DNA of 34,464 nucleotides from Alphaproteobacteria bacterium. GTDB lineage: Bacteria; Pseudomonadota; Alphaproteobacteria; TMED109. Below the pieces are notes generated by a model. That model saw nothing but the letters and a program-made list of their open reading frames with translations, searched no databases and was not told the DNA's origin. Every line of letters begins with the position of its first letter. The stretch's first letter is position 1. Position numbers and translations under genes: made by a program. The DNA is taken from contig JAJDYI010000031.1 of NCBI GenBank assembly GCA_022825235.1, positions 1 to 34,464 on the forward strand. The letters are read 5' to 3'. Below, piece by piece: positions 20,410-23,728 of the stretch.

Positions 20410-20603
20410 AGATGCAATGGATACATGCCCTAGGCTGGCGCGCCAGGCACCATGCCCGGCGCGTTCAGTCCCTGACAGCGAGTGGTGAACCTCCCGCATG
20501 GGGCAATGGGAGATCAATATTCCGTCTCATCGCGAATTTGTCATGTGTTGACCGCTGGTGTCAGTGTTTAGGCCTGTATCCGGCGCTTGCTATCTGCACC
20601 CGG

Positions 20604-20870
20604 TCATCGAAATAGGTCGGCATGGCTACCGGTATGTGTGAGCACCAGGGCATCGCCGTCGATATGCCAGATCAGAAGCCAGTCGGGCTCAATACGGCAT
20701 TCCCAGGAACGGGCCCTTCGGCCCGATAGCCGATGGGCACGGCAGTGAGGGGGAAGAGGCTGGTCGGAAAGCAGGCGCTCCACGACGGCCCAGAGTTTTT
20801 CGAGGTCCCGCTAACGGCGGCGGGCGCGACGCAGGTCCCGGCGGAACCGCTTCGAAGTGCGGAGGCGCAC
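20604..20870 (-). pseudogene. yafQ: YafQ/RelE-type toxin with an in-frame amber codon
   Basis: Downstream of the antitoxin, the minus strand encodes a complete YafQ-like mRNA interferase interrupted only by a TAG at 20811-20813. The reading is MRLRTSKRFRRDLRRARRR, stop, then RDLEKLWAVVERLLSDQPLP, a RIEPDWLLIWHID block and the C-terminal THTGSHADLF, which holds the catalytic His region. The start used is a GTG at 20870; a CTG overlapping the antitoxin stop is an alternative. With the stop the product is 19 residues and inactive. Total length of 88 codons equals the family norm. It seems a recent inactivation, since the rest is well conserved. Confidence 0.75.
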
Positions 20871-20878
20871 GTAGAGGC

Positions 20879-21142
20879 TCAGTCGTCAGGCACGGACGCC
20901 CTGAGTGCATCCAGATTTTCGTACTCGATGAGGTCCTTGCCGTCGTACGCCTCCTGCAGCTCCCGGCAGGTCTGTGCATTCGGAATGTTGACAGCGAACG
21001 GCATGCCGTGGCGCAGGGTGACCTGTTTGTAGAACAACGTAATGGCCTCAGTGGCGGAGAGGCCCAGTCGAGTGAAAATCGCTTCGGCGTCGTGCTTGAG
21101 TTTGGGTTCGACACGCGCTCGGATCATCGCGGTCTTGGTCAT
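20879..21142 (-). CDS. dinJ: RelB/DinJ-family antitoxin
   Basis: The 87-residue protein has the ribbon-helix-helix N-terminus of DinJ (TAMIRARVEPKLKHDAEAIF, then LGLSATEAITLFYKQV) and the RHGMPFAVNIPN segment typical of the family. A C-terminal tail (LIEYENLDALRASVPDD) would wrap the toxin. The ATG at 21142 was chosen because homologues begin MTKTA; the longer open frame upstream has no support. It would bind its own promoter and neutralise YafQ. Its toxin partner downstream carries a nonsense codon, so the antitoxin is probably an orphan. Confidence 0.85.
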   Translation of the reverse strand: MTKTAMIRARVEPKLKHDAEAIFTRLGLSATEAITLFYKQVTLRHGMPFAVNIPNAQTCRELQEAYDGKDLIEYENLDALRASVPDD

Positions 21143-21482
21143 GGGTGGCGTCCCTGTGCAGAGGCAACGTATCCTGGATGGGGTACAGCATAGCCGATGC
21201 GAACGGGTCCAGCGGCCGCGAGGCAGGAGCTCCATTCGGGATCGTGAGTGGGGCGGAGATCACTCAAACACGCATTGCGTTCTGAAGCACCGGGCCATGG
21301 CCGATGTCACAGAAGACCGATTGGCCCGCTTTGCTCACCACTGCCGGATGTGCTGACGTCGGGCAGTGTTTGGGGCCGGTTCCGGCAGGTGTCGGGGTCT
21401 GGATCGTGCCGCCGGGGAGCTTCCACCGGCCAGAGAGATCCACGCAGAAGGACCGTGGCGGGGTCGCAGTGCCCCGGCAGCC
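21143..21482. other. Intergenic region upstream of the antitoxin
   Basis: These 340 bases lie between the divergent start of the antitoxin gene and the first copy of the long direct repeat. They should contain the antitoxin promoter. I see no supported gene, and the open frames lack protein-like features. Confidence 0.35.
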
Positions 21483-21773
21483 CGAAGTCGCCCGCCAGGG
21501 GCTCACCACGGAAATCACGCGGGCGCGCCGCAACATGGGCGGCCGGAAATAGGCAAGATCTAGGTTCACGGCTTTTGGCAGGACCGGTCGGAGATGGACC
21601 GATCACGCCACTCAGTGCGCCTTGGCTTGGCCGGGCGGACCCGGCACGATCCGCCGCGAGACGGCCCTTAGGTTCCAGCTCATGGCCGCAGGGAGACCAT
21701 CATGAAGTTTTTTCGACTGGGGACCTTGCCCGCCGTATTGCTTGTCCTTGGGTCGGTTGGTGCAGCCGCTGCC
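21483..21773 (+). repeat. Direct repeat copy 1 (leader plus signal-peptide region)
   Basis: This 291-base segment aligns without gaps to 22574-22864, at a constant offset of 1091. By hand I count about 36 mismatches (about 88% identity). The last 97 bases, covering the ribosome site and signal-peptide codons, differ at only two positions, while the upstream part is near 82%. Copy 2 leads into the intact nucleosidase-like gene; copy 1 leads into a truncated frame. Confidence 0.85.
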
Positions 21774-21818
21774 GGCACCAACACCCGGATGACGGATGGA
21801 GCGGGCTCAGTCGTGTAA
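21702..21818 (+). pseudogene. Truncated copy of the nucleosidase-like gene's 5' end
   Basis: The ATG at 21702 starts a 38-residue frame that repeats the signal peptide of the downstream nucleosidase-like protein (MKFFRLGTLPAVLLVLGSVG) with one Ala-to-Val change. It then diverges into GTNTRMTDGAGSVV and stops. A trace of similarity (CCGGATGACG) persists for a few bases after gaps. The rest of the gene is absent and its place is taken by the end of a small gene on the other strand. It could still make a short exported peptide, since its ribosome site is intact. Confidence 0.65.
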
Positions 21819-22031
21819 CTCGAGACGCCGCTCGATTCGGTCCAGGCGTTCCTGCATGGCTGCGATGGTGCTGTCATGCGAAACTTCCGAGTGCATGAAT
21901 CCGGCCATGTGGGATTTGATCCCGCGAACGTCTGCCTGGAGTTCGTTCATCCGTCCATCCATGGCCGCCAGCTTGGCCTGGATGGCCTTGAGGTGCTCAA
22001 GCAGAAGCTGGTTGGTGACATTGTCGGTCAT
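21807..22031 (-). CDS. Small coiled-coil protein of unknown function
   Basis: A 74-residue protein, MTDNVTNQLLLEHLKAIQAKL to ERLDRIERRLELHD, with heptad spacing of hydrophobic residues over almost its whole length. It should form a coiled coil. Similar small proteins with LLEHLKAIQ and RLDRIERRL are common near mobile or decayed regions of alphaproteobacterial genomes, with no established function. The ATG at 22031 is used. It lies between the two copies of the long repeat, and its 3' end overlaps the truncated signal-peptide frame on the other strand by 12 bases. Confidence 0.65.
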   Translation of the reverse strand: MTDNVTNQLLLEHLKAIQAKLAAMDGRMNELQADVRGIKSHMAGFMHSEVSHDSTIAAMQERLDRIERRLELHD

Positions 22032-22573
22032 CTACTGGCCCTCAAAGGGGATCGTACTACGTAATCGGCGGCTGGGAAATAGGCTCGCCGCGACGGTAGA
22101 TCCTTGCTGATTCAGGCTTGTATCGGCGCGGGGAGCCGCTGCCGTGAGTTCCTCGCCTTACGGATGCTCAAATGGTGCCGGTCGGTTCCGCGCTTGCTGG
22201 TCGCGCCGTGGCAAGCAAGGCTCGCCCCTGTCGGATACAACTTGCCGGCGTCATTTTTCGGATTGACGGGACGCGCCGGGTGCCACCATCTGCGTGTCCT
22301 ACAGCACCCTGAGCACGCAGGGTTCGGCCTGCTGCTGCAAAAAACGCGCTGTACGGAGAAAATCCCTTCCCACTTGGGATATGCGTCTCGTCCAATCTAG
22401 AGCCTGGTGGCGTCCGATTCGGAATACGAGGCCGCCCTTTCTGGACTTGGAGAGTTCGCGTCCCACCTTGCACTGCCGAGCCCAGCCTCAACTTTCCGCG
22501 GAGTCCGCCACTCGCAGAGCCTTCTGCCATTAATCATTTGGTCTCCGGGGGCGGATCGAGCGCCGATCAAGCG
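22032..22573. other. Gene-poor spacer between the repeat copies
   Basis: These 542 bases contain only short frames without protein-like features. The composition is less GC-rich than the flanks in places. I recognise no gene, transposase remnant or RNA in it. Confidence 0.35.
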
Positions 22574-22864
22574 CGAAGTCACCCGCCAGGAGCTCGCCAT
22601 GGTAATCACGCGGGAGGGCCGCAACATGGACGGCCGCGAATGGGCAAGATCCAGGTTCCGGGGTTTCGGCAGGGCCGGTCCGAGGCAAACCGATCACGCA
22701 GTGCCGTGCGCCTTGGCTTGGCCGGGCTTACCCGGCACGATCCGGATCGAGACGGCCCTCGGGTTCCAGCTCATGGCCGCAGGGAGACCATCATGAAGTT
22801 TTTTCGACTGGGGACCTTGCCCGCCGCATTGCTTGTCCTTGGGTCGGTTGGCGCAGCCGCTGCC
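22574..22864 (+). repeat. Direct repeat copy 2 (leader plus signal-peptide region)
   Basis: This is the partner of the repeat at 21483-21773. It ends inside the signal-peptide codons of the intact nucleosidase-like gene and so includes that gene's ribosome site, and presumably its promoter. Confidence 0.85.
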
Positions 22865-23728
22865 GCGCCGGTGCCCGCGCACGGAGTCCGGGATGACGCC
22901 CCCCGCATTGCCGTGGTCTCCGCGTTCGCACCGGAACTCGCGATCCTGAAGAGCGAACTGACCGGGGCGACCATCCATGTGATGAACGGCGTCGAGTTCG
23001 CCACCGGCCGTCTCGAGGGACGCGCTGTCGTCCTGTTCCTGAGTGGCATCAGCATGGTCAATGCCGCCATGACTGTGCAGCTTGCAATCGACCATTTCAC
23101 CATCGACCGGATCGTGTTCTCGGGCATTGCGGGCGGGGTGGATCCCGCACTCGACATCGGGGACGTCGTCATTGCGGATCGCTGGGGCCAGTACCTCGAA
23201 ATGGTGTTCGCGCGCGACGGCCCGGAGGGATGGGAGAAGCCCCCCTTCTTCCAGTACCCGCACGGGAACTTCGGGATGATGTTTCCACGCTCCGTCACCG
23301 TTCAGCGCGCGGGCGCGCCAGCGCCGGAGACCCGGTTCTGGTTTCCCGCGGATGAAGCCATGCTCGCCGCCGCGCGCGATGCGGCCGGCGGCGTCGCGCT
23401 CGGGCGCTGCTCCGCCGAGGGCGCCTGCCTGGAACGCGCGCCAAGAGTTGTCGTCGGCGGTGCGGGGGTCTCGGGCGGCGCCTTCATCGACAATGCCGCA
23501 TTCCGCGACTACACGTTCGATACCTTCGGCGCGCGGGTGCTGGACATGGAAAGCGCCGCCGTGGCGCACGTGGCCTGGGCGAACGAAGTGCCGTTCATCG
23601 CCATCCGAAGCCTGTCCGACCTCGCCGGCGGGAGTGCCGGCGGAAACCAGCTGGACATCTTCTTCCGGCTGGCTGCCGACAACGCGGCACAGGTCGTGAA
23701 GGCGCTCCTGCATGCACTCCCCGAATAG
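22793..23728 (+). CDS. Exported MTA/SAH nucleosidase-like protein
   Basis: The 311-residue product has a signal peptide (1-24) and a purine-nucleoside phosphorylase/MTAN fold. Motifs include the start of the fold IAVVSAFAPELAIL (Glu48 in the position of the catalytic-pocket Glu), VFSGIAGGVDPALDIGDVVIA, the ribose-binding DMESAAVA with Glu253, and RSLSDLAGG with Asp276, the base-protonating Asp. All catalytic positions are kept, so it may cleave nucleosides such as methylthioadenosine outside the cytoplasm. An insertion with Cys206 and Cys212 (GRCSAEGACLE) may form a disulfide, in keeping with export. The ATG at 22793 follows AGGGAGA; the open frame upstream lies within the repeat and is not coding. 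Confidence 0.85.
   Translation: MKFFRLGTLPAALLVLGSVGAAAAAPVPAHGVRDDAPRIAVVSAFAPELAILKSELTGATIHVMNGVEFATGRLEGRAVVLFLSGISMVNAAMTVQLAIDHFTIDRIVFSGIAGGVDPALDIGDVVIADRWGQYLEMVFARDGPEGWEKPPFFQYPHGNFGMMFPRSVTVQRAGAPAPETRFWFPADEAMLAAARDAAGGVALGRCSAEGACLERAPRVVVGGAGVSGGAFIDNAAFRDYTFDTFGARVLDMESAAVAHVAWANEVPFIAIRSLSDLAGGSAGGNQLDIFFRLAADNAAQVVKALLHALPE

What the first reader, a model, noticed from the sequence alone, without database searches (positions are those of the whole stretch)
21483..22864. 291-bp gapless duplication of a leader and signal peptide
The two copies lie exactly 1091 apart. The ribosome site and signal-peptide codons are about 98% identical, but the upstream 190 bases only about 82%. 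Uneven divergence suggests gene conversion or selection on the 5' end. Copy 1 now encodes a 38-residue exported peptide.
Basis: seen in the sequence. Interest (0 to 1): 0.5.

Follow-up and report, generated by a model that had tools for sequence, protein, structure and literature searches.

The report
Dead partial copy of gene start
A stretch of about 300 bases carrying the start of an enzyme gene was copied about one kilobase upstream, long ago, in an area scarred by mobile DNA; the extra copy looks like an ordinary decaying fragment, not a working gene or a mobile leader.

Summary
Two copies, 21479-21774 and 22570-22865, lie 1091 apart without gaps at 88% identity; the upstream part is 82.7% and the ribosome-site/signal-codon part 97.9% identical. 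Copy 2 starts a nucleosidase-family gene (22793-23728). Copy 1 is a 5' fragment ending after codon 24 with a junction-derived tail. No third copy was found in the genome, so a mobile leader is not supported. Another species of the genus (G006) has both copies; G003 has one, on the copy-2 flank. So it is not an assembly artefact, copy 1 is derived, and the duplication predates that species split. The uneven divergence is significant here (p 0.003, break chosen from the data) but absent in G006 (p 0.95), and partly due to bunched changes in copy 1. Patchy gene conversion is possible but weakly supported; selection on the copy-1 peptide is not supported (V15D in G006). Copy 1 lies between a truncated, probably IS1380-type transposon end and a 74-codon ORF, near an interrupted YafQ/DinJ pair: probably an ordinary mobile-DNA scar.

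The parts
21479..21774 (+). copy 1: derived, truncated duplicate of the nucleosidase leader and first 24 codons
21702..21818 (+). 38-codon ORF of copy 1 (24 codons from the duplicate plus a short junction-derived tail); probably not functional
   Evidence: G006 version has V15D in the hydrophobic core
22570..22865 (+). copy 2: the native leader and signal-peptide codons
   Evidence: G003 has this arrangement with its only copy found
22793..23728 (+). predicted secreted nucleosidase, PNP_UDP_1 / TIGR01704 MTA-SAH nucleosidase family, 311 aa (signal peptide by eye)
21807..22031 (-). 74-aa coiled-coil-like ORF in the spacer; its homologue in G006 has an internal stop; another homologue lies on another contig in G005
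22250..22375 (-). probable decayed 5' end of an AAA/DUF4143 ATPase gene that is open upstream of the nucleosidase in G001, G002, G004 and G005 (weak match; approximate limits)
   Evidence: Pfam scan of the G001 protein only
21324..21433 (+). truncated dispersed repeat, probably the terminal repeat of an IS1380-type element, outer tip to the left, ending just left of copy 1
20879..21142 (-). RelB/DinJ antitoxin ORF; the YafQ toxin reading frame next to it (about 20600-20880, - strand) is interrupted by an in-frame stop

Best explanation
Copy 1 is a vestigial partial duplicate of the 5' end of the nucleosidase gene (leader, ribosome site, first 24 codons). It arose before the window's species and G006 separated, in an intergenic region repeatedly rearranged by mobile DNA (an IS1380-type end, a YafQ/DinJ module, a 74-codon ORF; in G006 also a TnpB gene), in which the ATPase neighbour seen in other species was lost or decayed. 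It has since drifted. Its closer 3' match to copy 2 most likely reflects constraint on the working copy-2 start, small numbers and bunched changes in the upstream part of copy 1, with perhaps minor gene conversion. Shown: the duplication, its derived state, its shared ancestry with G006, no further copy found. Inferred: that mobile elements caused it, and that it has no function.
For: 2 matches only in the own genome. Of 61 genomes searched, 5 match the copy-1 DNA: 2 (G000, G006) with two copies, 1 (G003) with one over 286 of 296 bases, 2 (G002, G004) over 69-75 bases near the start codon. In G003 window positions 20499 and 22440 lie 364 bp apart, so the stretch that holds copy 1 is extra in the window, and G003's copy continues the copy-2 flank. 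Six sites group copy 1 with copy 1 across species, against 2 and 0 for the other splits. Copy 1 in G006 has V15D, and the neighbouring ORF there has a stop. Leader differences between the two species are alike for copy 1 (23 of 201) and copy 2 (22 of 201), as expected if most of the leader is unconstrained in either. A repeat that borders IS1380-type transposase fragments elsewhere sits left of copy 1.
Against: The copy-1 ORF stays open at the same 38-codon length in both genomes, and its start region differs at only 2 of 95 sites between them, fewer than copy 2 (5 of 95); the copy-1 orthologues are themselves uneven (23 of 201 against 2 of 95, Fisher p 0.006; 0.15 without 21587-21614; max chi-square p 0.088), which drift alone does not predict. 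The max chi-square test for the window's pair is significant. No junction proves which element made the duplication.
Confidence: 0.78

Rival explanations
1. Gene conversion between the copies in the window's lineage homogenised about 100 bp around the ribosome site and signal codons.
For: 2 of 95 differences between copies here, fewer than between copy-2 orthologues (5 of 95), although the duplication is older than the split; max chi-square p 0.0034; two sites (21587, 21677) group the copies by genome, and at 21723 both window copies and G006 copy 1 share A where G006 copy 2 and G003 have G.
Against: The longest run of agreeing variable sites for the window's pair is only 4 (permutation p 0.35); a copy-diagnostic site (21736) survives inside the supposed tract; no unevenness in G006's pair; p 0.045 with a different break when clusters are collapsed.
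Confidence: 0.15
2. Copy 1 is a functional short exported peptide, its 5' end kept by selection.
For: Open 38-codon frame with a ribosome site in both genomes; 2 of 95 differences between the copy-1 orthologues at 21680-21774 against 23 of 201 upstream.
Against: V15D in the signal core in G006; over the whole ORF the sequences show 4 differences, 3 of them changing residues; the tail is junction sequence; the two-copy arrangement was found in 2 of 61 genomes, and in 2 of the 7 of this genus.
Confidence: 0.05
3. The leader is a structured regulatory RNA (for example a SAM/SAH riboswitch) copied as a module.
For: The gene is in an MTA/SAH nucleosidase family; a GC-rich fold is predicted.
Against: No Rfam match here at the gathering threshold, and at E up to 5 only an implausible lncRNA at E 3; 1 of 66 predicted pairs has a change on both sides that keeps it; in G001, G002, G004 and G005 DNA similarity at copy 2 begins only at or near the start codon (22769-22806).
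Confidence: 0.02
4. Assembly expansion or chimera.
For: Draft assembly in 87 contigs.
Against: The same arrangement, with copies 1080 apart, in the genome of another species; within each genome the copies differ by 8-13%.
Confidence: 0.01

Closest known systems
Truncated paralogue (partial gene duplication) decaying as a pseudogene
   Same: Only the 5' part of a gene is copied, broken sharply at both ends, derived relative to a single-copy relative, apparently drifting
   Different: Keeps a short open frame through its junction; shared by two species, so relatively old
IS1380-family insertion sequence (family name recalled; Pfam DDE_Tnp_1_4) end remnant
   Same: The 110 bp left of copy 1 match dispersed repeats; in contigs 49 and 16 of the same genome these lie near DDE_Tnp_1_4 transposase fragments
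   Different: No DDE_Tnp_1_4 match in the window's contig, and the duplicated leader itself is not part of the element

Membership tests
MTA/SAH nucleosidase (TIGR01704) for the copy-2 gene | score above the curated cut-off | tested here: met
   103.1 bits against 73.8; but the related NF004079 model is below its cut-off (140.1 against 169)
mobile leader / repeat family | more than two dispersed copies in the genome | tested here: not met
   2 matches in the own genome; 40 of 72 first-look candidates scored
gene-converted duplicate pair | tract significantly more alike within a genome than between genomes | tested here: inconclusive
   run test p 0.35, max chi-square p 0.0034 here and 0.95 in G006, splits 6:2:0
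known riboswitch or other Rfam RNA | covariance-model match | tested here: not met
functional secreted microprotein | conserved signal peptide and tail under purifying selection | tested here: inconclusive
   V15D, and 3 of 4 differences change residues, but only two sequences, and few differences in the start region
functional secreted microprotein | expression and export | not testable with these tools
   no expression data
IS1380-type element for the repeat left of copy 1 | adjacent transposase of that family | tested here: inconclusive
   none in the window's contig; fragments near two other copies of the repeat (contigs 49, 16)

The most novel reading that the evidence does not exclude
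Copy 1 is still transcribed and translated as a short exported peptide, or it is a silent partner that exchanges sequence with the real gene start by gene conversion, so that a working gene's 5' end is kept uniform by a fragment.
Probability: 0.06. Interest if true: 0.35.

Novelty: new member of a known kind. Interest (0 to 1): 0.1.

Why it matters
As an ordinary partial duplication it matters little: it shows how regions rich in mobile DNA leave gene fragments in this lineage, and warns against annotating the 38-codon ORF as a secreted peptide. If gene conversion between the fragment and the working gene were proved with more strains, it would be a small example of a pseudogene shaping a gene's start.

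Tried and rejected
Riboswitch or structured leader: Rfam scans and a consensus fold gave no support. Sigma-70-type promoters and intrinsic terminators at 21400-22900: 0 and 0 found, uninformative for this lineage. Mobile leader: not supported. Whether the spacer 21775-22569 recurs in the genome: only itself (all 20 first-look candidates scored). A blastn of 21400-22569 against a set of fetched loci (17 listed, and up to 10 more if present) found no second IS end right of copy 1. IS110 was my first guess for the dispersed repeat; Pfam favours DDE_Tnp_1_4 (E 2.1e-31 for the contig 49 fragment; for the G001 ORF 4.7e-4, below its cut-off, and IS110 at 0.058). In the control the DDE_Tnp_1_4 model rings in 3 of 14 well-known genomes, over its cut-off in 1. 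Two literature searches (listings and abstract starts seen only) gave nothing used here; no claim about print is made.

Full report
What is there. The two copies are at 21479-21774 and 22570-22865, 296 bp, no gap, 88% identical, 1091 apart. Identity is 163 of 197 at 21483-21679 and 93 of 95 at 21680-21774. Copy 2 ends inside the signal-peptide codons of a 311-aa protein (22793-23728) that matches Pfam PNP_UDP_1 (E 5.4e-42) and passes the cut-off of TIGR01704, MTA/SAH nucleosidase (103.1 against 73.8 bits), but not that of NF004079 (140.1 against 169). That the N-terminus is a signal peptide is my reading of the sequence; no predictor was run. Copy 1 gives a 38-residue ORF, 24 codons from the duplicate and the rest from the junction.

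Other copies. In the own genome (3.85 Mb, 87 contigs) only these two were found (40 of 72 first-look candidates scored). Of 61 genomes (own plus relatives) 5 match the copy-1 DNA: G000 and G006 with two copies each, G003 with one over 286 of 296 bases, G004 and G002 over 69-75 bases (at most 12 candidates scored per genome). The nucleosidase protein itself matches in 7 of 7 genomes of the genus examined.

Which copy is new. In G003 window positions 20499 and 22440 are 364 bp apart, and its copy continues the flank of copy 2. So the stretch 20500-22440, with copy 1, is extra in the window relative to G003. In G001, G002, G004 and G005 the same place holds an open frame of 424-481 codons on the opposite strand, an AAA/DUF4143 ATPase by Pfam (G001 protein scanned). 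A decayed start of it is weakly recognisable in the window's spacer (tblastn E 0.001-0.002 in a small set) and better in G006 at DNA level (E 2.6e-10 against G001). Copy 1 is therefore the derived copy.

Age. Across the window, G006 and G003, six sites group copy 1 with copy 1 of the other species (21509, 21551, 21561, 21576, 21638, 21736), two group the copies by genome (21587, 21677), none supports the third split. The duplication most likely predates the split of these two species.

Uneven divergence. For the window's pair 35 of 201 against 2 of 95 (Fisher p 6e-5); with the break chosen by the data, p 0.0034. For G006's pair 18 of 201 against 7 of 95 (p 0.82; max chi-square p 0.95). For copy-2 orthologues 22 of 201 against 5 of 95 (p 0.13). 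For copy-1 orthologues 23 of 201 against 2 of 95 (p 0.006, or 0.15 without 21587-21614; max chi-square p 0.088). Against G003 the four copies give p 0.01 to 0.10. In all 8 comparisons the 3' part is the less diverged one. Thirteen of the window's copy-1 bases differ from an otherwise uniform column, 7 of them at 21590-21614, where copy 1 differs from the other three window/G006 copies at 10 positions in all. Without 21587-21614 the window's pair still gives p 0.001; with clusters counted as single events p is 0.045 and the best break moves to 21594. A run test for conversion in the window's pair is not significant (p 0.35), nor in G006's (p 0.28). One run test was low, window copy 2 with G006 copy 1 (12 sites, p 0.005), which mirrors the bunched changes in the window's copy 1. 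My reading: constraint on the start of the working gene plus chance and bunched changes, with patchy conversion not excluded.

Function of copy 1. In G006 the peptide has aspartate in the hydrophobic core (V15D), and within the ORF 3 of 4 differences change a residue (read from the sequences). Against this, the start region of copy 1 differs little between the two species (2 of 95). Two sequences cannot settle the matter; nothing found points clearly to selection for export.

Setting. Left of copy 1, 21324-21433 matches a repeat found at 7 other places in the own genome, 27-104 bases long, on contigs 4, 16, 49, 81, 85 and 86. In contig 49 the repeat borders the C-terminal part of a transposase (Pfam DDE_Tnp_1_4, E 2.1e-31), and in contig 16 an N-terminal part lies a few hundred bases off. 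It is therefore probably that element's terminal repeat; the name IS1380 for this family is recalled. Right of copy 1 lies a 74-aa coiled-coil-like ORF (21807-22031), with an internal stop in G006, an 84% relative in G005 and a remote one in G039 (4 of 61 genomes match, own included). The G005 relative lies beside an antitoxin-like and a TnpB-like ORF, by my reading. Further left is a DinJ/RelB antitoxin with a YafQ frame interrupted by an in-frame stop. G006 carries in addition a TnpB gene at the place matching window 21280-21287; whether it was gained there or lost in the window is not shown. The region collects mobile DNA, and copy 1 is a fragment within it. That a particular element made the copy is inferred, not shown.

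Verdict. True observation, ordinary explanation; interest 0.1.

Noticed in passing
window 21324-21433; G000 contigs 16, 49, 81, 85, 86: Dispersed repeat, in its best copies starting TAGCCCGCTTCGCTCACCAC, apparently the terminal repeat of a DDE_Tnp_1_4 (IS1380-type) element; copies in contigs 81 and 86 and in G006 contig 41 sit near ORFs that look like Phd antitoxins by eye, not tested by a family search.
   Followed up: partly
window 21807-22031 (-): 74-aa coiled-coil-like protein without a Pfam family above cut-off; relatives in G005 (84%) and G006 (86%, one stop) and a remote one in G039 (36%); the G005 one lies near antitoxin-like and TnpB-like ORFs by eye.
   Followed up: partly
window 20600-21142 (-): DinJ/RelB antitoxin open but the YafQ toxin frame interrupted by a stop; a similar stretch (89%, window 20543-21261) is on contig 45 of G001, whose nucleosidase gene is on contig 8.
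   Followed up: partly
window 21587-21614: Bunched substitutions in the window's copy 1 that seem to create local repeats (GGACCGGTC...GGACCGATC and CACTCAGTG), perhaps template-switch mutations; by eye only.
   Followed up: no
L023 229-1626 (-), G006 contig 24: TnpB/IS605-type gene (465 aa) in G006 at the site matching window 21280-21287, with TTCTGAAG on both sides.
   Followed up: no
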